64,000 nt of DNA from Deltaproteobacteria bacterium (GTDB taxonomy: Bacteria; Myxococcota_A; Polyangia; Polyangiales; JADJMO01), in contig JANYDK010000071.1 of assembly GCA_025363655.1 (NCBI GenBank), positions 186,001-250,000 of the forward strand. Reading direction: 5' to 3'. Of the stretch, positions 12,652 to 22,631 are shown one piece after another; position 1 is the first letter of the stretch, and each line of letters begins with the position of its first letter. A program made the translations under genes and the position numbers. A model generated the notes under the pieces. The model was given only the letters and a program-made list of their open reading frames with translations, was not told where the DNA came from and did not search any database.

Positions 12652-12678
12652 TGTCGAACTCCTCGTCGGCCGCTCGAC
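12652..12678 (+). promoter_or_regulatory. Candidate ECF42-type promoter upstream of DoxX-like/YCII operon
   Basis: TGTCGA at 12652-12657, 17-nt spacer, CGAC at 12675-12678, then 4 nt and CCATGAAG. The same arrangement occurs at 22115-22141 before another YCII gene. As recalled from the literature, ECF42 sigma factors recognise TGTCGA at -35 and CG(A/T)C at -10. An ECF42-like sigma factor is encoded at 19081. Confidence 0.7.
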
Positions 12679-12742
12679 GTGTCCATGAAGGCGCAGGCTG
12701 GTGCCCGCCGGACCCCACGCTCGAACGACTTGGAGACCCGTC

Positions 12743-13186
12743 ATGAATGCCATCGAGAACGTGATCGAGAACGTGACCGAGAACGTGATCGCTCCTGCTC
12801 CCACCACCCCCGAGCTCGTCATGCGCGCGCCCCTTTGGTCCGGTCGCGTCCTCACCGGTCTGATCGTCGCGTTCTTGATGTTCGACGCGATCGGAAAGTT
12901 GATTCCGATTGCGCCGGTCGTCGAAGGCTCGCGGAAAGTAGGCATCGCCTACGAGGTCATTCGGCCCCTCGGCGTCGTGCTCGCGCTCTCGACGTTGCTC
13001 CACCTGATTCCGCGGACGCAGCTCGTCGGCGCGGTGCTCTTGACCGCGTACCTCGGCGGCGCGACGGCTACGCACGTGCGCATCGGTACGCCGTTCTGGT
13101 TCCCCGTCGTGATGGGCGTGCTCCTCTGGATTGCCTACACCCTGCGGAGCCCGAAGCTGCGCGCCCTCCTCGCCAAGGAGGGCTGA
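12743..13186 (+). CDS. DoxX-like membrane protein
   Basis: 147-residue membrane protein with four hydrophobic segments in the arrangement of the DoxX_2 family (LTGLIVAFLMFDAIGKLI, IRPLGVVLALSTLLHLI, LVGAVLLTAYLGGATATHV, FPVVMGVLLWIAYTLR). The conserved YLGGATATHVR stretch before the last helix is characteristic. The N-terminus has an ENVIENVTENVI repeat, encoded by a 12-nt repeat. The ATG at 12743 has GGAG about 8 nt upstream. Family members are often co-encoded with small DGPF/YCII proteins, as here, where the next gene lies 79 nt downstream. Expression probably depends on the ECF42-like promoter at 12652. Confidence 0.88.
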   Translation: MNAIENVIENVTENVIAPAPTTPELVMRAPLWSGRVLTGLIVAFLMFDAIGKLIPIAPVVEGSRKVGIAYEVIRPLGVVLALSTLLHLIPRTQLVGAVLLTAYLGGATATHVRIGTPFWFPVVMGVLLWIAYTLRSPKLRALLAKEG

Positions 13187-13265
13187 GGCGCATCGCACTC
13201 ATCGCCCTCATCGCACTGCGCGATTCATTCGTTTACGCACGTCACACACAGAGGAGACTCGAAAC

Positions 13266-14012
13266 ATGCGCTTCATGATCATGCACAAGCACGACGCCAA
13301 CACCGAAGCTGGCGTGATGCCGCCGGCGAAGCTCATTCAAGAGATGGGCGCGTTCATCGGCGAGTACTTGAAGGACGGTCGGTTCCTCGACGGCGCCGGG
13401 CTCGGTGCCAGCAAGACCCGCACGCGGATGATCTTCCGCGACGGGCGCAGCTCGGTGAAGCACGGCCCCTATCACGGTGAGCACGAGCTGCCGGCCTCCA
13501 CACTGCTCCTCAAGGTTCGCACGCGCGACGAGGCCATCGGCTGGGCCGAGCGCTACGGGAAAATTCTCGGCGACTGCGAGCTCGAGCTCGGCAAGATCAC
13601 CGAGCCCTGGGACCTCGGCGTGATGCCGATGCCGGAGAACCCGCCCCTGCAGATTCTCCTCATCGAAAAGGCCGACGAGGCGACCGAGGGCGGCGGACGC
13701 TCGTCGAAGACGAAGGGCGAGCTCACCCGTCTGCGCACCGAGATGACGAAGGCCGGCGTGCTCGTGAGCACGTTGCACCTGCAACCGAGCGCCAAGGCCA
13801 AGCGCCTCGTCTTCACCAAGAACGATCTGCGCGTGCTCGACGGACCGTTCGCCGAGTCGAAGGAGCTGATCGGCGGCTTCACGGTGATGGAGCTCGCCGG
13901 AGGTATGGACGAGGCGATCTCGATGTGCCGACGCTATGCGGAGATTCTCGGTGGAACGCTGGAGATCGACGTCCGCACCGTCGACACCAGCGAGCAAGCC
14001 GAGACGGTTTGA
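13266..14012 (+). CDS. Two-domain YCII (DGPF) protein
   Basis: 248 residues made of two YCII/DGPF units. The first (about 1-110) is divergent: it begins with MRFMIMHKHD and has HGPYHG where DGPF is expected. The second (about 125-240) carries RVLDGPFAESKELIGGF, the signature of the family, and the usual ferredoxin-like fold pattern. Small DGPF proteins are typical targets and neighbours of ECF42 sigma factors; their biochemical role is unclear, though YciI itself has a catalytic His-Asp pair. GAGGAG lies about 10 nt before the ATG. The 3' 185 bp (13812-13996) are duplicated at 17771-17954. Confidence 0.9.
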   Translation: MRFMIMHKHDANTEAGVMPPAKLIQEMGAFIGEYLKDGRFLDGAGLGASKTRTRMIFRDGRSSVKHGPYHGEHELPASTLLLKVRTRDEAIGWAERYGKILGDCELELGKITEPWDLGVMPMPENPPLQILLIEKADEATEGGGRSSKTKGELTRLRTEMTKAGVLVSTLHLQPSAKAKRLVFTKNDLRVLDGPFAESKELIGGFTVMELAGGMDEAISMCRRYAEILGGTLEIDVRTVDTSEQAETV

Positions 14013-14105
14013 ATCGACTCCTGTGTATTCTTCTCGCATACGGAAACATCGGGAGAGCCTCTCGGCTCACTGGCCAACACCGATCGCGAGAGTGATAGTC
14101 GGGAG

Positions 14106-15254
14106 ATGAATCTGCATCTCCGTGTCGTGCTCGTCGTGCTGGTCTTGGACGCGCTGGTCGGTTGCAGCAGCGCGTCCTCGCCCTCCCTCGGGACCGACGA
14201 CGACGCGGGAAATTCAGTCGATTCTGCGATCGACACGGGAACGCCGACGAGCGACGCGGGCGACTCGACTGGCGACGCGGTGACGTCGGACGCCGCGCCG
14301 ATCACCGCACCGGCCGACACCTGGACTTGGATCGACTTCCCCGACAGCAAGTGTGCGTCGGGGACGACGACCGGAATCGGGGTGAATCTGCATCCCGGGA
14401 GCAAGAAGCTCCTCGTCTATCTCGAAGGTGGCGGCTCGTGCACCGATGGACAGACCTGTTGGGTGACGCCCAATCCGCAGGGATACACCTCGGGGTATGG
14501 CGCGGCCGAGTTCGCGAAAGAGTCGGCGGTGAAGAACAGGCCGATGATGGGGCGTGACGCGTCGTCGGGGAGCCCGTTCATCGACGCCAACCTCGTCTTC
14601 GTCCCGTACTGCACAGGCGACTATCACAGCGGCACCAAGATGAAGACGCTCGACGTGCCCGGCGGATCGCCGCGAGACACGTATTTCTGGGGTGGACGCG
14701 ATCTCGATCTCTTCCTCGCACGGCTGCAGGCGACGGTGCCCGACGCCGATCACGTGTGGCTCGCGGGAGGGAGCGCAGGAGCCGTCGCGACGGTGCTCGA
14801 CTACCACAAGGTGCAGAGCGCGTTCGGCGTGCGCACCGACGTCATCGACGACTCGGGCCCTCCGCTCGGCATCGTCACCGACGGGACCACTCTCGCGCTC
14901 TGGGGGACGCAACTCGCGTCGAGCTGCAGCTCCTGTCGCACGCTCGAAGAGGTGATGCTGGACATTCGCGCGACGCACCCCGAGAGCCGATTCGCCTACA
15001 TCGGCTTTCAATACGACGTCGTCGTCGCCAACGGATATGGCCTCGCGATTGCCGATTACCCGACAGCGCTCGAGAAGCTGCTGACCGACATGAAAGGCGA
15101 CGCCAACTTCCAGAGCTTCGTCGTCCAGAACGCGAAGAGCAAGCCGCAGCACGTGGTCGAGAATCACTTCGACGACGCGACGATGACGAAGGCGGTGGAA
15201 GCGTGGCTGACGACGATGGTGAGTGATGGAGCGTGGTCGAGCGTGAAGTATTGA
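14106..15254 (+). CDS. Pectin acetylesterase/Notum-family lipoprotein
   Basis: 382-residue exported lipoprotein. The signal MNLHLRVVLVVLVLDALVGC ends in a lipobox Cys, followed by a long Asp/Ser/Thr-rich linker to about residue 70. The catalytic part has LLVYLEGGGSC (oxyanion region), VFVPYCTGDYHSG, and the nucleophile elbow AGGSAGA, all typical of the pectinacetylesterase/Notum carboxylesterase fold; the closing QHVVENHF likely supplies the His. It would remove acetyl or other acyl groups from polysaccharides or proteins outside the cell. Start has GGGAG directly upstream. Monocistronic, convergent with the next lipoprotein gene. Confidence 0.88.
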   Translation: MNLHLRVVLVVLVLDALVGCSSASSPSLGTDDDAGNSVDSAIDTGTPTSDAGDSTGDAVTSDAAPITAPADTWTWIDFPDSKCASGTTTGIGVNLHPGSKKLLVYLEGGGSCTDGQTCWVTPNPQGYTSGYGAAEFAKESAVKNRPMMGRDASSGSPFIDANLVFVPYCTGDYHSGTKMKTLDVPGGSPRDTYFWGGRDLDLFLARLQATVPDADHVWLAGGSAGAVATVLDYHKVQSAFGVRTDVIDDSGPPLGIVTDGTTLALWGTQLASSCSSCRTLEEVMLDIRATHPESRFAYIGFQYDVVVANGYGLAIADYPTALEKLLTDMKGDANFQSFVVQNAKSKPQHVVENHFDDATMTKAVEAWLTTMVSDGAWSSVKY

Positions 15255-15391
15255 GGATCGAGGATCGAGGGGATCAGAGCGGCGGTTGCGCGTGGGGGGA
15301 GCCGGGGGCAGTGTCGCCGTGGGTGTTCGTGGTGGGTGTCGGCGCGCTCGCGGGGCCCCCGCAGGGCTGTTCGCTTAGGTCGCGACGTGCC

Positions 15392-16618
15392 TCACGGGGT
15401 CAGCACCAAAATCGGATAGAAATGCTTCTCCTCGGCCGTGCTCGAAACGACGGTGACGAGCTCGGTGTGGTAGTTCCCCGCCGCCTTCACGCCGATGGTG
15501 AGGTGCGCGACGACGCCGTTGTTCAGTTGGTCGACGTCGAGATCGAGGTGTAGGTGACCGACGTCGGTCCAGAGACCGTCGATCATCGCGTTGCCCTCGA
15601 CGACATGCAGGTTCCAGTCGGTCCTGGCCGCGAAGCTGTATCCGTACAGCTCGACGACCTGGCTCTCGCCTGCCGCGATGGTGATTCCCTTCACGCTGTC
15701 GGGCACGGTTACGTTGAAGAAGGGCGTCGCGGGAGCCGGCACGCAGGGGTAGTGGTTGGCATCGGCCGCCGCGTTCGACCACGAGCGCTGCACGTAGAAC
15801 TCGAAGCCCGGTTCCTTGTCTTGATATTCGGCTGTCGGCTCCCACTGGCAGAGATCGGCGGCCTCGGTCGCCCCGCCAAAGAGCGTGTTCCATGCCATCA
15901 GAGTTCTATCGAGATAGGCATAACCGTGACCGAGATCGGGATCGGTGGCGACCTCGACGAGCTCGTGGGCGACGTCCTGCGTGCGATCGGCCGAGCCCGC
16001 CGGGATGATCGCGTAGCGGATGCTCTTGCCGTCGATGTTGGCGCTGGCGTGATGAGGGAGCCCTATCGCCGACACGTTCTTCGTCTTCGGCGAAACATAT
16101 ATGACGTAGACCGCACCCTCCGGGGTGGGCAATTTGCCGGAGTGGACGAGTGCGGTCATGAGCACCGTCTCGTCGTCGGCCTCTCCGCGAAGGCCGATTC
16201 GGGCGGGCGGCTCGTCGGTCAGTCGCACATGGTTCGCGGGGCCGCTCTTCGCCGGCGAAATCCCATACTCGCTCGTCGTCTCTCGCCAATAGGCGCTGTC
16301 TCCGAGCTGATCGGCGAACGCCTCCAGCCGATCGACGTTGGTGTTGTCGGAATAGGTGACCGTGACGAAGGTCGGCGACGGCAGCACCACCGACGCGCGC
16401 TTCACCAGCCGAGGGAGATCGGGCGTCAGGGCCGGAAAGGGAATCGGCGGAGCGGTGTCGAGCGTGCTGGAGTCGTCACGACCATCCGCGCCAGCGTCCG
16501 ACGGCGGGAGACCGACGTCACTCGCGTCACTTGCCGGAAGAGCATTCGTGGAAGGGTCAGACGAGCCACAGCCTGCGAGCAGAACGGCGAGACCGAGCGG
16601 GATGCGGGCGAGATGCAT
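15392..16618 (-). CDS. Lipoprotein with HELVE zinc-protease-like motif
   Basis: 408-residue lipoprotein. The ATG at 16618 starts MHLARIPLGLAVLLAGCG, a clean lipoprotein signal with Cys17. After a Ser/Asp linker, a domain of about 220 residues follows with H218-E-L-V-E222 in the context DVAHELVEVATDPDLG. This HExxE-x4-DP arrangement resembles a metallopeptidase helix but lacks the second His of HExxH, so activity is uncertain. The last 100 residues are beta-rich. I do not recognise a named family. It converges on the pectin acetylesterase gene and is followed on the same strand upstream by another lipoprotein gene at 16759-17598. Confidence 0.7.
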   Translation of the reverse strand: MHLARIPLGLAVLLAGCGSSDPSTNALPASDASDVGLPPSDAGADGRDDSSTLDTAPPIPFPALTPDLPRLVKRASVVLPSPTFVTVTYSDNTNVDRLEAFADQLGDSAYWRETTSEYGISPAKSGPANHVRLTDEPPARIGLRGEADDETVLMTALVHSGKLPTPEGAVYVIYVSPKTKNVSAIGLPHHASANIDGKSIRYAIIPAGSADRTQDVAHELVEVATDPDLGHGYAYLDRTLMAWNTLFGGATEAADLCQWEPTAEYQDKEPGFEFYVQRSWSNAAADANHYPCVPAPATPFFNVTVPDSVKGITIAAGESQVVELYGYSFAARTDWNLHVVEGNAMIDGLWTDVGHLHLDLDVDQLNNGVVAHLTIGVKAAGNYHTELVTVVSSTAEEKHFYPILVLTP

Positions 16619-16758
16619 GCGAGCCTTTCCAGCGCCGACGAGCGCCAACCCGCAGCGTGCCACGCACGTCCGGTTCCCGGCTGTATCCCGTGGGGAAAGA
16701 CCCCGCGCAACGTCGCACGGACACTCGTTTGGGCCAGCGCAAGTACCGCCCGTCGCGC

Positions 16759-17598
16759 TCAAAGCTTCAAAAACGACTTTCGCTTCGCCTCGTCGTTGGG
16801 CACGAAGGCTCCGAGCACCCCCGCGCGTGAACAGAGGCGAAAATACTCCTTCCGCCCATTGCTCTTTCCGGTCGCCTTGTCCCAGTCGATGGCTGTGTAG
16901 TGGAGGAGGAATTGCCCACGATAGGGGCCACTCGCGATCTCCTCTCCGGACCCCGGAAGCATCACGTCCTTGCCGCTCGCGAGCTCTCGGATGTGCGTGT
17001 CGTCGCCATGCGGGGCGGCCGGAGAGGGGTTGGTTCGATAGATCACCGCCGCTGCGTCGAGCGTGAAGTCAGGGCCAGACACGTTGGCGAAGTTGCCGTC
17101 GTGCACGGTCGGGGATTCACTCGCCTGCAACAGACGCGGCGCGCTGCCCGACGCGAGGTACCAGAGGTCGTCGCATTGACCGCCACCCTCGTCGTACGGG
17201 AGGGCGCACGCGCTCGCGGACCGACGACGAATGAAGGCTATTTGCAGGCGATCGGGCGAGAGCACGGCGACGAGCACATCACCGAGGCGAGTCACACGCG
17301 CCTCTCCGGAGGCAAACTCGGCGACCACGTCGCCAGCATCGACGCGCACGCGAAGAGCCTTCGCGAACACGGTCGTCACGATGCCTGCCGACGCGGTGGC
17401 CGATGCCGTTACTGCCGAAGTCGCTGATGGCGTCGCTGATGTCGCTGCCGGAAGTGCTGTGGTTGCTGATGATGATGCCGAACTCGACGTGCTCGAGGTC
17501 GACGGTTCGGGCCGTGGCGCGTCGGTCTGCGTGCGACAGGCCGCCAGGCACGCGAGAAACGCGGCCCGCGAGAGGGTGAGTTGCCCGACGAAAGCCAT
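16759..17598 (-). CDS. Hypothetical lipoprotein with Ser/Ala/Thr-rich linker
   Basis: 279-residue exported protein. The ATG at 17598 gives MAFVGQLTLSRAAFLACLAAC, a lipoprotein signal; a longer upstream frame would bury this signal and is rejected. Residues 25-75 are almost only Ser, Ala, Thr and Pro, a flexible cell-wall-spanning linker. The remaining 200 residues look like a beta-propeller-type fold with repeated short strands (VVAEFASGEARV, DTHIRELASGKDVML), but no family is recognised. It lies 140 nt upstream of, and co-directional with, the HELVE lipoprotein gene. Probably outer-membrane attached. Confidence 0.65.
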   Translation of the reverse strand: MAFVGQLTLSRAAFLACLAACRTQTDAPRPEPSTSSTSSSASSSATTALPAATSATPSATSAVTASATASAGIVTTVFAKALRVRVDAGDVVAEFASGEARVTRLGDVLVAVLSPDRLQIAFIRRRSASACALPYDEGGGQCDDLWYLASGSAPRLLQASESPTVHDGNFANVSGPDFTLDAAAVIYRTNPSPAAPHGDDTHIRELASGKDVMLPGSGEEIASGPYRGQFLLHYTAIDWDKATGKSNGRKEYFRLCSRAGVLGAFVPNDEAKRKSFLKL

Positions 17599-17663
17599 GG
17601 GCGTGAAACGTGCGAGAGGGCCGGCCAATTCACCGATTCCCCGTGCGCGCCTCTCGTAGGCGC

Positions 17664-17769
17664 TCAGCGCGCCGGCACCTGCTCTCCGGTGTGCAACTCC
17701 GCCGTGCCCGCCGCCCAACTCCACTTCGGCGCGCCATCGCCGACCACTCCTTCAACCGCGCGGGAGCCG
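17664..17769 (-). pseudogene. Possible C-terminal remnant of an unidentified gene
   Basis: On the minus strand an open frame of about 35 codons ends in TGA at 17666-17664. Its translation (ending WAAGTAELHTGEQVPAR in part) reads like a genuine protein C-terminus but has no start and stops being recognisable exactly where the duplicated YCII sequence begins (17771). Origin unknown; coding status is an inference from its appearance. Confidence 0.3.
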
Positions 17770-17770
17770 G

Positions 17771-17967
17771 TTCACCAAGACGATCTACGCGTGCTCGACG
17801 GACCGTTCGCCGAGTCGAAGGAGCTGATCGGCGGCTTCACGGTGATGGAGCTCGCCGGAGGCATGGACGAGGCCATCGCGATGTGCCGGCGCTATGCGGA
17901 GATTCTCGGTGGAACGCTGGAGATCGACGTCCGCACCGTGGACACCAGCGAGCAGCCGGCGGGCTAA
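17771..17967 (+). pseudogene. Truncated duplicate of the YCII gene
   Basis: 184 bp (17771-17954) matching the last quarter of the YCII gene at 13812-13996 with about 96% identity. One base is missing near the left end (AAGAACGAT versus AAGACGAT). Of the six substitutions seen, five are synonymous third-position changes and one is Ser to Ala, so the copy was under selection before truncation. It retains the DGPFAESKELIGGF signature and a stop codon at 17965, but lacks its 5' three quarters and any evident start or ribosome binding site. An accidental chimeric frame opens upstream; I do not think it is a gene. Confidence 0.8.
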
Positions 17968-18001
17968 AAATCGCACGCCCGAAAAAAATCGTCATCTAAG
18001 G

Positions 18002-18029
18002 TGTCCGGATCTGCCCTCGGTCGATCGTC
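18002..18029 (+). promoter_or_regulatory. Weak ECF42-like promoter before the GST-YCII-sigma operon
   Basis: TGTCCG at 18002-18007 and CGTC at 18026-18029, spaced by 18 nt, directly upstream of the GST start at 18038. This departs from the TGTCGA-N17-CGAC form of the other two sites by one base and one nt of spacing. If used, the GST mRNA would be nearly leaderless. Confidence 0.35.
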
Positions 18030-18037
18030 GTCTAGAC

Positions 18038-18688
18038 ATGACGATCCTCATCTACCGCAGTCAGTTTCCGTTCACCCGTGACGCCCGCGTGCGCTGCATG
18101 CTCGAAGAGCTCGGCGTGCCTTACGAGACCGCGATGGTGCACCTCCTCGGCGACACGAGCGCCTTCCAGAAGGTGCACCCGCGCGGGAAAGTGCCCTTCC
18201 TCGTCGAAGACGATCGCCAGGGCGAGCGGCTCGCGATCTCCGAGTCGGGCGCGATTCTGCTTCACCTCGCGGAGAAGCACGACGTCGAGGGGAAGCTCCT
18301 TCCGCGCAATTCGCTCGAACGCGCGCGGGTTTATCAGTGGCTCTTCCACACGGTGACCGAGATCGATCCGGCGCTGGGGGGCGTCTTCGCCAACAAAGTC
18401 TTCTTCAAGGGCAAAGAGGGCGCGGAAGAAGCGGCGCGAGCGAGCGAGGCGATTTTCGCCAAATTGACGGGGTTTCTCGAGGCGGCGCTCGATGGCCACG
18501 AGTTCCTCGTCGGCGACAAGCTGAGCCTGGCCGACCTCGCGCTCGTCGTCACCCTCGATTGGGGCGCGCGCGTCGGTGCGCTCACGAGCTACCCTCGCAT
18601 CGCCGCGTATCATGCACGGCTTGCCAGTCGCCCGGCCATCGCCAAGGTGCTGGGCGAGGCGGCGCCGAAATCGACCGTCGCCGCGTGA
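18038..18688 (+). CDS. Glutathione S-transferase family protein
   Basis: 216-residue cytosolic GST. The thioredoxin-like N-terminal domain (1-80) shows SQFPFTRDARVRCMLEELGVPY in pieces and the cis-Pro segment GKVPFL, then ISESGAIL, the glutathione gamma-glutamyl contact (ES). The all-alpha C-terminal domain holds FLVGDKLSLADLAL, the N-capping box. It probably conjugates or binds glutathione-like thiols; the substrate is unknown. The ATG at 18038 sits close to the candidate promoter at 18002, so the message may be leaderless. It is followed after 36 nt by a YCII gene and then the ECF sigma gene, suggesting one stress operon. Confidence 0.92.
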   Translation: MTILIYRSQFPFTRDARVRCMLEELGVPYETAMVHLLGDTSAFQKVHPRGKVPFLVEDDRQGERLAISESGAILLHLAEKHDVEGKLLPRNSLERARVYQWLFHTVTEIDPALGGVFANKVFFKGKEGAEEAARASEAIFAKLTGFLEAALDGHEFLVGDKLSLADLALVVTLDWGARVGALTSYPRIAAYHARLASRPAIAKVLGEAAPKSTVAA

Positions 18689-18724
18689 GTCCGGCGACCG
18701 AGTGAAGCGCGTCGGAGAACCCAC

Positions 18725-19075
18725 ATGCCCAAATTCCTCTACGTGTTTCGCGGTGGTGCCCGGGTGACTCCCGGGCTCTCGCCGACCGAGCTGCAAGCGC
18801 ACCTGAAGAAGTGGACCGATTGGGTGACCGAGCTGACGAAAGCGGGGAAACATGTCCCCGGGGGGTATCCCGTCGACAGCGCGGGCAAGACGTTGCGCGG
18901 CCGTGAACGCACCATGACCGACGGGCCGTACGCCGAATCGAAAGATCTGGTGATTGGCAATCTGGTCGTGGAGGCGGCGTCGCTCGAAGAAGCAGCGCGG
19001 CTCGCGGAAGGCTGCCCGGTCTTGGAGTACGACGGCTCCGTCGAGGTACGGCCGATCCTCGAGCGAACGAGCTGA
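18725..19075 (+). CDS. YCII (DGPF) family protein
   Basis: 116-residue single-domain member of the YCII family: MPKFLYVFRGG strand, GKHVPGGYPVDSAGKTLRG, then TMTDGPYAESKDLVIGNLVVEAASLEEA, where DGPY replaces DGPF. It immediately precedes the ECF sigma gene with a 5-nt gap, the conserved arrangement for ECF42 groups, where the small DGPF protein is the partner and target of the sigma factor. Its role is unknown; a ligand-binding or oxidative-stress function has been suggested for the family. ATG at 18725 is preceded by GGAGAA. Confidence 0.93.
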   Translation: MPKFLYVFRGGARVTPGLSPTELQAHLKKWTDWVTELTKAGKHVPGGYPVDSAGKTLRGRERTMTDGPYAESKDLVIGNLVVEAASLEEAARLAEGCPVLEYDGSVEVRPILERTS

Positions 19076-19080
19076 AGCGG

Positions 19081-20370
19081 ATGCCCGCTGGTGACGCGGA
19101 CGACTCGGTGCGCCCGGCCGCGATCGCGGAAGATCTCTTCCGTCGAGAATCGGCGCGCCTGGTCGCCGCGCTCACCCGTCTGCTCGGGCCGGCGCAGCTC
19201 GCGTTGGCGGAGGACGTCGTCCAAGACGCCCTCGTGACGGCGCTCCACGCCTGGCGATTCGGCCTGCCCGATGACCCCCGGGGGTGGATTCTCACCACCG
19301 CGAAGAATCGCGCCATCGATGCCATTCGCAAGAGCCGCCGGCTCGTGGCGTTGCCGAGCGAGTCCGTCGACGAGGCGCTCTCCGATTCGCTTTCGGACGC
19401 CCTCTCCGACGCGTTCTCCGACGCGAACGACGAGGACAACCAGCTGGCGATGATGTTCTCGTGTTGTCACGACGAGCTCTCCGATGACACGCGCGTGACC
19501 CTGATTTTACGCTTCCTCTGCGGTCTCGGGCCGCGGGAGATCGCCCGCGCTTACCTCGTCGACACCGACACCATCGATCGGCGGATTCATCGCGGCCGCA
19601 AACGGCTCGAGTCGCTCGGACGTCTCCACGACGTGCACGCACCGAAGGAGGCGCAGGCGCGTCTCCCCTCGGTGCTACGCGCGCTCTATCTCCTCTTCAA
19701 CGAGGGCTATCACGGGAGCGACGACGACAATCCACTGCGAGCGTCGATGTGCTCGGAGGCGTTGCGACTCGTCGATCTCCTGCTCGGCTCGGAGGTGACG
19801 ACGACGCCCGAGGTGCACGCGCTCGCGGCCCTCTTTTGCTCGAGCGCCGCGCGCCTCTCCACGCGCACCGACGCCGACGGGGTCTTCGTGCCCCTCTCCG
19901 AACAAGATCGAAGTCGATGGAGCCGCGAGCTCATCGAGCGAGGTGTCGTCCATCTGGCCGAGTCGGCGAGCGGCGTGCACTTGTCGCGCTGGCACCTCGA
20001 AGCGGGCATCGCCTGTGAGCATGCGATCGCCACGTCCGTCGAGACCACGAATTGGACGAGAATTCTCGGCCTCTACGACGCGCTCCTGACGATCGTCCCC
20101 GGACCGGTGGTGGCGCTCAATCGAGCGCTCGCGGTCGCCGAAATTCATGGCCCGAAGGCCGGTCGCGACGCGCTCGACGCGCTCGAAGGCGATCGTCGCC
20201 TGGACACGTATCCCTTCTATTGGGCAGCACTCGCCGATGTCGCGCGGCGCGCGGAAGACTTCGACGAGGCCACGCGGTGCTACGAGCGCGCCATCGCCGT
20301 CGCCCGCAGTCGCGCCGAACGAACGGCGTGTGAACGAAGACTGGAAGAATCACGCCTTCGTCGGCGATGA
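19081..20370 (+). CDS. ECF sigma factor of the ECF42 type with TPR-like C-terminal extension
   Basis: 429 residues. Sigma2 region at about 15-85 (AEDVVQDALVTAL, WILTTAKNRAIDAIR), sigma4 at about 125-190 (LILRFLCGLGPREIARAYLV, helix-turn-helix), then a 240-residue C-terminal extension (LLFNEGYHGS, GPVVALNRALAVAEIHG, PFYWAALADVARRAEDFDEA) of the DUF6596/TPR kind that defines ECF42-like factors and replaces a classical anti-sigma factor. The linker between sigma2 and sigma4 (98-117) carries an unusual LSDSLSDALSDAFSDA repeat. It directs RNA polymerase to promoters of DGPF genes. It overlaps the convergent YdeI-like gene by 21 nt. Confidence 0.93.
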   Translation: MPAGDADDSVRPAAIAEDLFRRESARLVAALTRLLGPAQLALAEDVVQDALVTALHAWRFGLPDDPRGWILTTAKNRAIDAIRKSRRLVALPSESVDEALSDSLSDALSDAFSDANDEDNQLAMMFSCCHDELSDDTRVTLILRFLCGLGPREIARAYLVDTDTIDRRIHRGRKRLESLGRLHDVHAPKEAQARLPSVLRALYLLFNEGYHGSDDDNPLRASMCSEALRLVDLLLGSEVTTTPEVHALAALFCSSAARLSTRTDADGVFVPLSEQDRSRWSRELIERGVVHLAESASGVHLSRWHLEAGIACEHAIATSVETTNWTRILGLYDALLTIVPGPVVALNRALAVAEIHGPKAGRDALDALEGDRRLDTYPFYWAALADVARRAEDFDEATRCYERAIAVARSRAERTACERRLEESRLRRR

Positions 20371-20967
20371 GCCCTTGGCGCTGTTCGGGTGAATGGTCTT
20401 CCCTTCGGCGAGCATCTCGACGAAGGCGGCGATTCGCTTCTTTCGTCCGGCGTCGGTCTTGAGCGCGAGCGTGCGAAACGTCAGCGAAAATCGATTTTGC
20501 GACGACAGAGTCTCGTACGTCGCCTGCGCCTTCGGCACGGCGCGAATGGCCGCCAAGAGCTCCGGCGGGGCTTCGGTCTTCGTCATGCGATAAGCCTTCG
20601 CCCAGCGTCCATCGGCCTTGGCGGCGTCGACCTGTGCCAGGCCGGAGGGCTGCATTCGACCCGCCTCGGCGAGCCGCGCGACATTGGCGACGTTGACCTG
20701 GCTCCACACGCTCTTCTTACCCCGCGGGGTGTAGCGCTGGAGAAAGCTCTGCTCGTCGAACGACTTGCGAATGGCGTCGATCCAACCCCAACAGAGCGCC
20801 ACGTCGATGGCTTGCGTCGGAGTGATCGACGGCAATCCGGAGCGGAGCTTGTAAAGTTTGATCCACACCTCTGGCTCTTTGTTCCAGTTCTTCTTCAGCC
20901 ACTTCTCGAAGGCCCGCTCGTCCTCGAAGGCGTGCACTCGGGCGGGATCGACTTGGACGGGAGGCAT
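20350..20967 (-). CDS. YdeI/OmpD-associated family protein
   Basis: 205 residues with the YdeI-type signature: FEKWLKKNWNKEPEVWIKLYK, then ITPTQAIDVALCWGWIDAIRKSFDE, YTPRGKKSVWSQVN, and a C-terminal bacteriocin-protection-like segment (APPELLAAIRAVPKAQATYETLSSQNR) ending in RKKRIAAFVEMLAEGK. Members are small cytoplasmic proteins of unclear role, linked in enterobacteria to OmpD and to antimicrobial tolerance. The 3' end overlaps the ECF sigma gene by 21 nt on the opposite strand. ATG at 20967 is preceded on its strand by a possible small membrane-protein gene ending 16 nt upstream. Confidence 0.9.
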   Translation of the reverse strand: MPPVQVDPARVHAFEDERAFEKWLKKNWNKEPEVWIKLYKLRSGLPSITPTQAIDVALCWGWIDAIRKSFDEQSFLQRYTPRGKKSVWSQVNVANVARLAEAGRMQPSGLAQVDAAKADGRWAKAYRMTKTEAPPELLAAIRAVPKAQATYETLSSQNRFSLTFRTLALKTDAGRKKRIAAFVEMLAEGKTIHPNSAKGSSPTKA

Positions 20968-20982
20968 TGGCAGAAGGATAGA

Positions 20983-21219
20983 TCAGGAAAATCGCACGCC
21001 GAGCGCCAGAATCGCAATCATCGCGATGATCTGCACGCAGTAGAACGAAAAGCGAATCGAGACCGTGCGCGCGCTCTCGAGCCACCCTACGTCCCTTGCA
21101 GCGTCTCGGCGGCGGGGGGGCGACGATCGGCGCGAACTCTTTCCGTCGGCCAAGTGACCGACGGGACGCAACATGGGCAGGCGAGAGGCGATTCGGTAGG
21201 GCGCAGGCGCGAATGACAT
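20983..21219 (-). CDS. Possible small protein with C-terminal membrane helix
   Basis: 78 codons. The N-terminal 50 residues are Arg/Pro/Ser-rich and look non-coding, whereas the end (SFYCVQIIAMIAILALGV) is a convincing transmembrane helix. It is co-directional with and 16 nt upstream of the YdeI-like gene. The nominal ATG lies exactly in the 3-nt loop of a strong inverted repeat, which argues against that start. It may be a fragment, a short protein using an internal start, or not a gene. Confidence 0.3.
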   Translation of the reverse strand: MSFAPAPYRIASRLPMLRPVGHLADGKSSRRSSPPRRRDAARDVGWLESARTVSIRFSFYCVQIIAMIAILALGVRFS

Positions 21220-21230
21220 TCATTCGCGCC
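21206..21230. repeat. Perfect 11-bp inverted repeat after the SDR gene
   Basis: GGCGCGAATGA (21206-21216) and its exact complement (21220-21230) around a CAT loop. It begins 7 nt beyond the SDR stop codon and could stop transcription or protect the SDR mRNA 3' end, but no T-run follows on either strand. Confidence 0.75.
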
Positions 21231-21236
21231 CGTCAC

Positions 21237-21989
21237 TCAACCATCGAGCGAGCCAATCCCACTCTTCCCTTTCAGCCCAAACGCGACCCCATTCTCGTAG
21301 CGCGGGTCGGTGAGAATCTTCACCACGTGTTCGCCCACCATTCGCGGCGGCAGCGGGTCACCGAAGGCCGCGAGAAAGGCCTCGACGCTGACGCCCTTCT
21401 TTCGCGCGTAGGTCTCGGCGGCATGCCGACCGAGCTCGGTGTCACCGATGATCTGCTGCGGCAAGACGGCCTGAAAGCGGACGTCGAGATCGAGCTCCTT
21501 GGCGACGTCGTTGGCGTAGCTCGCCATCAGCCAGAGCATTCGTTTGGCGCCGGCGTAGCTGCCAGAAAGGGGTGAGCCGTTCACCGCCGCGCCGCTCGAT
21601 CCGAGGATGACGCGACTGCCGCGCGGCAGCGGAAGACGAAGCGCTGCTTGCACCCAGTGAAAACCGGCTTTGACGTCGACGTCCCAGGCGCGGTTGAAGT
21701 CTTCCCAGGTGAGCTGGTGCAGCGGAGCCATCGCCGGCGTGGCTCCGGCGTTGAGCACCAGCACGGTCGGGCGCAGCTCGCCCAAGAGACGACGCGCGAG
21801 GCCCTCGTCGGTGACGTCGCCGCGAACGACTTCGACGCCGAGTCGCTGCGAGACCGCCGCCAGACGCTCGGGATCACGCGCCACCACCGTGACGCGCGCC
21901 TTCTCCGCCACCAGCGCCTCGACGATGCCGAGCCCGAGCCCGCGGCTGCCACCCGTGACGATCGCGCTCTGTCCTTCCAGTGTCTTCAT
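21237..21989 (-). CDS. Short-chain dehydrogenase/reductase
   Basis: 250-residue classical SDR. Cofactor motif TGGSRGLGLG (TGxxxGxG) at about 12-21, with VVARD after beta2, whose Arg suggests NADP preference; LNAGA replaces NNAG; catalytic Ser in LGSSGAAVNG and SYAGAKR supplies the YxxxK pair. The substrate is unknown. The ATG at 21989 has AGGAG 6 nt upstream and is preferred to the much longer open frame reaching to 23267. It is divergent from the YCII gene at 22200, with 210 nt between, which contains that gene's ECF42-type promoter. Confidence 0.92.
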   Translation of the reverse strand: MKTLEGQSAIVTGGSRGLGLGIVEALVAEKARVTVVARDPERLAAVSQRLGVEVVRGDVTDEGLARRLLGELRPTVLVLNAGATPAMAPLHQLTWEDFNRAWDVDVKAGFHWVQAALRLPLPRGSRVILGSSGAAVNGSPLSGSYAGAKRMLWLMASYANDVAKELDLDVRFQAVLPQQIIGDTELGRHAAETYARKKGVSVEAFLAAFGDPLPPRMVGEHVVKILTDPRYENGVAFGLKGKSGIGSLDG

Positions 21990-22114
21990 GTCGATTCTCC
22001 TCTCGTGAACCTCTCCCCGAGAGGACGATCGGAGAGGGCGAAAGGATGCGCCGGGAGAATTTTGACCTGAACCTTCGGTGTTTTTGCGTGACTGCGATTC
22101 TTTTCTCGATCTCG

Positions 22115-22141
22115 TGTCGATCTCGTCGATGGTCGTTCGAC
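22115..22141 (+). promoter_or_regulatory. Candidate ECF42-type promoter upstream of YCII gene
   Basis: TGTCGA at 22115-22120, 17-nt spacer, CGAC at 22138-22141, then 4 nt and CCATGAAG. This matches the site at 12652-12678 in both elements, spacing and downstream octamer. The octamer begins a five-codon frame (ATG AAG CAG GCA TCG TGA) 51 nt before the YCII start. Confidence 0.75.
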
Positions 22142-22199: not shown

Positions 22200-22631
22200 A
22201 TGAAGGTCATGGTCATCATCAAGGCGACGAAGAACTCCGAAGCGGGCGTGATGCCGAACGAGCAGATGCTCCGCGAGATGGGGCAGTTCAACGAAGAGCT
22301 GGTGAAGGCAGGCGTGATGCTCGCGGGAGAAGGTCTCCATCCGAGCGCGAAGGGACGGCGCATCCACCTCGCGGGCGGCAAGCGCACCGTCGTCGACGGG
22401 CCGTTCACCGAGGCGAAGGAGCTCATCGCTGGCTTCTGGATCTGGCAGGTGCGATCGATGGACGAGGCGACCGAGTGGGTGCGCCGCTGCCCCGATCCGA
22501 TGCCCGGCGAGGAGAGCACCATCGAGCTCCGCCAAATCTTCGATGCCGCGGATTTTGGGGCGGAATTCACGCCTGAGCTGCGCGCGCAGGAGGAGCGGCT
22601 GGCCGCGGAGATTGCACGACGGAAGGCCTGA
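22200..22631 (+). CDS. YCII (DGPF) family protein
   Basis: 143 residues: MKVMVIIKATKNSEAGVMP N-terminal strand, LHPSAKGRRIHLAGGKRTVVDGPFTEAKELIAGFW, then DEATEWVRRCP and a charged C-terminal helix. This is a full-length, canonical DGPF protein and the best preserved of the set in this window. The start ATG lies 59 nt downstream of the candidate ECF42-type promoter. It is monocistronic as far as can be seen: the lipoprotein gene that follows has its own strong ribosome binding site 79 nt later. Function as for other YCII proteins is unclear. Confidence 0.93.
   Translation: MKVMVIIKATKNSEAGVMPNEQMLREMGQFNEELVKAGVMLAGEGLHPSAKGRRIHLAGGKRTVVDGPFTEAKELIAGFWIWQVRSMDEATEWVRRCPDPMPGEESTIELRQIFDAADFGAEFTPELRAQEERLAAEIARRKA

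What the first reader, a model, noticed from the sequence alone, without database searches (positions are those of the whole stretch)
12652..22141. ECF42-like sigma factor with a dispersed regulon and two matching promoters
The window encodes one ECF42-type sigma factor (19081, with TPR-like tail) and three full YCII/DGPF genes plus a fragment. Upstream of the DoxX-like/YCII operon (12652-12678) and of the stand-alone YCII gene (22115-22141) the same element occurs, TGTCGA-N17-CGAC. The published ECF42 promoter, as I recall it, is TGTCGA and CG(A/T)C. Other TGTCGA hits in the window lack CGAC or CGTC at 17 nt. This links three transcription units to one sigma factor and defines candidate targets (DoxX-like, YCII, perhaps GST).
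Basis: partly seen in the sequence, partly recalled or inferred. Interest (0 to 1): 0.65.

Follow-up and report, generated by a model that had tools for sequence, protein, structure and literature searches.

The report
Two ECF42 promoter codes side by side

Summary
In detail: TGTCGA-N17-CGAC lies 64 nt before the DoxX/YCII operon (12652-12678) and 58 nt before the lone YCII gene (22115-22141). One detail is wrong: two more exact N17 matches exist in the window (16456, 48484), both antisense inside genes. Genome-wide the element is a genuine ECF42-type promoter: only 16 of 100 sites are intergenic, and 6 of the 8 lying 30-70 nt before a start precede YCII genes.

The link to the sigma factor at 19081 is not supported. 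The genome has seven ECF42 sigmas. The window's sigma belongs to a clade whose loci carry TGTCCG-N17/18-CGTC, never TGTCGA; the other ECF42 sigmas go with TGTCGA-N17-CGWC. Residues at the sigma4 -35 contact positions change with it (AQR to EKR or DRR). The window's sigma (DRR) has TGTCCG-N18-CGTC at 18002-18029, before its own GST-YCII-sigma operon; no other site in the genome is so placed. Homologues of gene 22200 keep the TGTCGA promoter in genomes lacking the window-type sigma, and sit next to AQR sigmas.

Likely cognate of the two TGTCGA promoters: the AQR sigma at C39:14847-16079. All binding assignments are inferred from sequence. Known kind of system, apparently unreported specificity split.

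The parts
12652..12678 (+). TGTCGA-N17-CGAC promoter (T1 type) of the DoxX-YCII operon
   Evidence: T1 also before homologues of gene 13266
12743..13186 (+). DoxX-like membrane protein, 147 aa
   Evidence: PF13564
13266..14012 (+). two-domain YCII/DGPF protein, 248 aa; closest YCII in the ECF42 loci examined is that of L083, beside an AQR-type sigma
   Evidence: PF03795
17780..17967 (+). fragment of the YCII gene 3' end; contains a 175-bp, 97% repeat of 13822-13996
18002..18029 (+). TGTCCG-N18-CGTC (T3 type): predicted promoter of the window sigma's own operon; predicted start coincides with the GST start codon (leaderless)
   Evidence: distance rule from PMC6180224
18038..18688 (+). glutathione S-transferase-like protein, first gene of the sigma operon
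   Evidence: GST_N_3/GST_C_3
18725..19075 (+). YCII/DGPF protein of the 'FRGG' type, partner of the T3-clade sigma (65% to the YCII of L054)
   Evidence: PF03795
19081..20370 (+). ECF42-type sigma factor, 429 aa; sigma4 triad D166-R167-R168 instead of AQR
22115..22141 (+). TGTCGA-N17-CGAC promoter (T1 type) of the lone YCII gene
   Evidence: TGTCGA-N17-CGWC before 16 of 29 homologues
22200..22631 (+). lone YCII/DGPF protein, 143 aa; 67% to the YCII beside AQR-type sigma L154
   Evidence: PF03795

Best explanation
The window holds two neighbouring ECF42 circuits with different -35 codes. (1) The sigma at 19081 (DRR type) recognises TGTCCG-N18-CGTC at 18002-18029 and so drives its own operon GST-YCII-sigma, an autoregulatory loop. 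(2) The TGTCGA-N17-CGAC promoters at 12652 and 22115 belong to the classical ECF42 code and are read by one or more of the six AQR-type sigmas elsewhere in the genome, most likely C39:14847-16079, which has no YCII gene beside it. Shown from sequence: the sites, their positions, conservation, and the split of promoter type with sigma clade and sigma4 residues. Inferred: that each sigma binds its site, that the codes do not cross-talk, the choice of the C39 sigma, the leaderless start, and activation through the TPR-like tail (proposed for ECF42 in PMC8999054).
For: Seven ECF42 sigmas in the genome. TGTCGA-N17-CGWC precedes the YCII genes beside the AQR sigmas at C116:111347, C99 and C19, and near-matches (one mismatch) precede the C31 and C113 YCII genes. 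In 26 clade-A loci, TGTCCG occurs at spacing 17 in 10 and 18 in 10, with no TGTCGA; in 20 other loci TGTCGA occurs only at 17. The TGTCCG forms fall within one 27-sigma clade holding the window's sigma, SH-aLRT 98. Sigma4 triad against promoter: AQR with TGTCGA 9 of 9 strict, DRR or EKR with TGTCCG 21 of 21 strict; L155, AQR but grouped with the window's side of the tree, still has TGTCGA. All 10 actinobacterial relatives have the TGTCCG-N18-CGTC arrangement just after the sigma gene (one, L058, reads CGTCCG). Of 98 T3 sites classified in the genome only the window's is intergenic within 100 nt of a start. Homologues of 22200: T1 before 16 of 29, TGTCCG before none; every sigma detected beside a 22200 or 13266 homologue is AQR (6 of 6); relatives of the window's sigma at 60% or more were found in only two other genomes of the order, G437 and G460. 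G003, the one of 29 genomes without an ECF42 match, also lacks T1 before its 22200 homologue. YCII partners sort the same way.
Against: The switch of triad and promoter is a single change on the tree, so the association rests on one event and the Fisher value overstates it. No binding or transcription data. A DRR sigma might still bind TGTCGA. Choosing the C39 sigma over the other five AQR sigmas rests on YCII-partner similarity in relatives (L154, L083). The 12652 site lacks the spacer features common in homologues (TC after TGTCGA, TCGTT before CGWC). The spacing in the window's clade varies (N17 in L130). Many homologues of 22200 and 13266 show no strict site. Gene starts are from a home-made caller.
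Confidence: 0.77

Rival explanations
1. One reading: the sigma at 19081 drives both TGTCGA-N17-CGAC promoters and its own operon.
Against: The window's sigma clade has TGTCCG sites, none TGTCGA; its own operon has TGTCCG; homologues of 22200 keep TGTCGA in genomes where no relative of this sigma at 60% or more was found.
Confidence: 0.1
2. Cross-talk: TGTCGA and TGTCCG promoters are read by both sigma types, so the seven ECF42 sigmas form one overlapping network (overlaps in part with the best explanation).
For: Same -10 (CGWC) and shared TGTC; one genome with seven paralogues.
Against: Clean split of promoter type by clade suggests separate codes; not tested directly.
Confidence: 0.2
3. The elements are chance matches in a GC-rich genome.
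For: 100 sites genome-wide, 84 of them inside genes; raw counts are not in clear excess.
Against: 6 of 8 well-placed intergenic sites precede YCII genes; spacing 17 conserved before homologues in other genera.
Confidence: 0.02

Closest known systems
ECF42 group of sigma factors (e.g. Sven_0747 of Streptomyces venezuelae; ECF-10 of Pseudomonas putida; RpoE10 of Sinorhizobium meliloti)
   Same: sigma2-sigma4 plus about 200-residue C-terminal extension with TPR matches, YCII gene next door, promoter TGTC..-N17-CGWC
   Different: The window's clade has TGTCCG at -35 (spacing 17 or 18), DRR/EKR in the sigma4 triad, 'FRGG'-type YCII, and variable passenger genes (GST here, RibD_C in L128, MFS or RibD_C downstream in actinobacteria)
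S. meliloti RpoE10 regulon (PMC6180224)
   Same: mapped promoters TGTCGG-N17-CGTC; small regulon; YCII gene before the sigma gene; glyoxylase-like targets
   Different: TGTCGG rather than TGTCGA or TGTCCG; that paper concludes RpoE10 apparently does not activate its own operon
ECF41 group
   Same: no anti-sigma, long C-terminal regulatory extension (PMC8103513, PMC6180224)
   Different: extension is SnoaL-like, not TPR/DUF6596; carboxymuconolactone decarboxylase neighbour, not YCII

Membership tests
ECF42 | sigma70 regions 2 and 4 | tested here: met
   PF04542 and PF08281 over cut-off
ECF42 | about 200-residue C-terminal extension with TPR | tested here: met
   DUF6596 119.7 bits; TPR_7 and TPR_2 significant but under their Pfam cut-offs
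ECF42 | YCII/DGPF gene adjacent | tested here: met
   18725-19075, 5 nt upstream
ECF42 | cognate promoter TGTCGA / CGWC (published consensus, not necessarily definitive of the group) | tested here: not met
   own operon has TGTCCG-N18-CGTC; its clade has TGTCCG. Protein-level features are met, so it is filed as a promoter variant within ECF42-like sigmas
ECF42 | assignment by the official ECF classification profiles | not testable with these tools
   the profiles are not on hand and the 2021 classification paper is not held
ECF42 | activity depends on the C-terminal extension | not testable with these tools
   needs experiment
TGTCGA-type ECF42 promoter (sites 12652, 22115) | TGTCGA-N17-CGWC, intergenic, before YCII units, conserved in relatives | tested here: met

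The most novel reading that the evidence does not exclude
ECF42 sigmas split into two lineages with separate -35 codes (TGTCGA against TGTCCG), set by a swap at the two sigma4 contact positions (AQ to EK/DR), so that neighbouring ECF42 circuits in one genome are insulated from each other, and TGTCGA-controlled YCII genes can persist away from their sigma.
Probability: 0.65. Interest if true: 0.55.

Novelty: new variant of a known kind. Interest (0 to 1): 0.48.

Why it matters
ECF42 is a widespread sigma group with unknown signal and often several copies per genome. If two residues set two separate promoter codes, regulons of paralogues can be told apart from sequence, wrong assignments by proximity are avoided, and a naturally orthogonal sigma/promoter pair is at hand. 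Whether the split is already noted in subgroup tables of the ECF classification could not be checked.

Tried and rejected
Raw motif counts genome-wide: uninformative, because TGTCGA is common inside genes; position had to be used. Idea that the window was once one operon DoxX-YCII-GST-YCII-sigma split by an insertion flanked by the 175-bp repeat: not supported, since GST-YCII-sigma has its own clade-type promoter, related loci show YCII-sigma without DoxX, and YCII 13266 is of the other type. Original ECF42 and ECF classification papers not held. Independent-pairs test has no power: one change on the tree. Extra intergenic TGTCGA sites before lipoprotein-like genes (C89:26824, C141:5505) taken as chance: their spacers lack the conserved TC / TCGTT features.

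Full report
Observation. Both elements are exact and lie 64 and 58 nt before the start codons of DoxX (12743) and YCII (22200). The sigma gene has sigma70 regions 2 and 4, DUF6596 and weak TPR matches. YCII genes: 13266 (two domains), 18725, 22200, plus a fragment holding a 175-bp, 97% repeat of the 13266 gene's 3' end. The statement that no other TGTCGA has CGAC/CGTC at 17 nt is wrong: 16456 and 48484 do, both antisense within genes.

Is it more than chance? Counting alone says little (4 sites, 1.33 expected). Position does. The genome has 100 exact TGTCGA-N17-CGWC sites. I classified them with a simple codon-usage gene caller: 16 intergenic, 84 inside genes. Of the 8 sites 30-70 nt before a start, 6 precede YCII units: window 12652 (DoxX-YCII) and 22115, C2:12301, C19:25159, C99:14171, C116:113080 (the C116:113080 YCII gene was missed by my caller and is placed). 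The C31 and C113 YCII genes have one-mismatch forms at spacing 17. S. meliloti ECF42 promoters have the same N17 spacing, TGTCGG-N17-CGTC (PMC6180224).

Which sigma? The genome has seven ECF42 sigmas; the six others are 38-41% identical to the window's. The window's nearest relatives are in a Myxococcales MAG (65%, L054) and actinomycetes (57-59%, L055-L064). There, no TGTCGA-N17-CGWC promoter was found near the sigma operon, but TGTCCG-N18-CGTC was: before YCII-sigma in L054, and just after the sigma gene in all ten actinobacterial loci (one reading CGTCCG). The window has it at 18002-18029, 8 nt before the GST start codon. More distant relatives (42-48%, plus L130 at 60%) have TGTCCG-N17-CGTC.

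A count over all dinucleotides after TGTC and spacers 12-23 shows the split: 26 loci of the window's clade, CG at 17 in ten and at 18 in ten, GA never; 20 other loci, GA at 17 in seven, CG at 17-18 never. On the tree the TGTCCG forms fall in one clade with the window's sigma (27 rows, SH-aLRT 98). The sigma4 triad, which aligns with the R-S-R of the recognition helix of E. coli sigma-E in its -35 complex 2h27 (that the first two contact DNA is my recollection of the 2h27 work), is AQR in the TGTCGA sigmas and EKR or DRR in the TGTCCG sigmas, 30 of 30 strict cases. With relaxed motifs the rule also holds in L144 (KKR), L145 (QKI), L147 (HKR) and L155, which is AQR and has TGTCGA although it groups with the window's side of the tree. 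This is one evolutionary change, not many.

Test from the target side. Homologues of gene 22200 across the order have TGTCGA at spacing 17 before 16 of 29, and TGTCCG before none; homologues of 13266, 10 of 29 and none. Where a sigma was detected beside a homologue it was AQR (6 of 6). Sigma relatives at 60% or more to the window's were found in only two other genomes of the order (G437, G460). Of 29 genomes with a 22200 homologue, 28 have an ECF42 matching the C39 sigma; the exception, G003, lacks the promoter too. YCII 22200 is 67% identical to the YCII beside sigma L154; 13266 is closest, among the ECF42 loci examined, to the YCII beside L083; 18725 is closest to L054's. The own-genome sigma grouping with L154 and L083 is C39:14847-16079 (74% to L154), which has no YCII next to it. 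It is the best candidate for 12652 and 22115.

Targets of the window's sigma. There are 99 TGTCCG-N18-CGWC sites in the genome; of 98 classified, only the window's is intergenic within 100 nt of a start. Its strict regulon may thus be its own operon. In S. meliloti a mapped start lies 9 nt after CGTC; applied here this gives 18038, the A of the GST ATG, so a leaderless transcript is predicted (inference).

Mechanism. Inferred: TPR-tail-controlled sigma (proposed for ECF42, PMC8999054), with the YCII protein as possible partner; output here a GST-like enzyme plus YCII and more sigma. The signal is unknown.

Limits. No experiments; single-switch phylogeny; home-made gene calls; the original ECF42 paper and the ECF classification were not readable, so the TGTCCG subgroup may already be listed there. 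Searches of the held library found no report of it.

Noticed in passing
13822-13996 and 17780-17954: 175-bp, 97% direct repeat 3958 bp apart: the 3' end of the two-domain YCII gene is duplicated just upstream of the GST-YCII-sigma operon, a probably recent rearrangement.
   Followed up: partly
L067:5812-9732 (C39): The ECF42 sigma without a YCII neighbour lies 6 nt downstream of a long gene with a Ser/Thr kinase and an FGE-sulfatase domain; possible control by phosphorylation.
   Followed up: no
12745-12791: Start of the DoxX-like gene has a 12-bp tandem repeat encoding IENV/TENV units.
   Followed up: no
L128, L134, L137, L055-L064: Passenger genes of TGTCCG-type ECF42 loci vary: GST here, RibD_C-like, MFS transporter, or a 238-244-aa protein without Pfam match.
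   Followed up: partly
L155 (G474): ECF42 sigma that groups with the TGTCCG side of the tree but keeps AQR and a TGTCGA-N17-CGTT element: a possible pre-switch form.
   Followed up: partly
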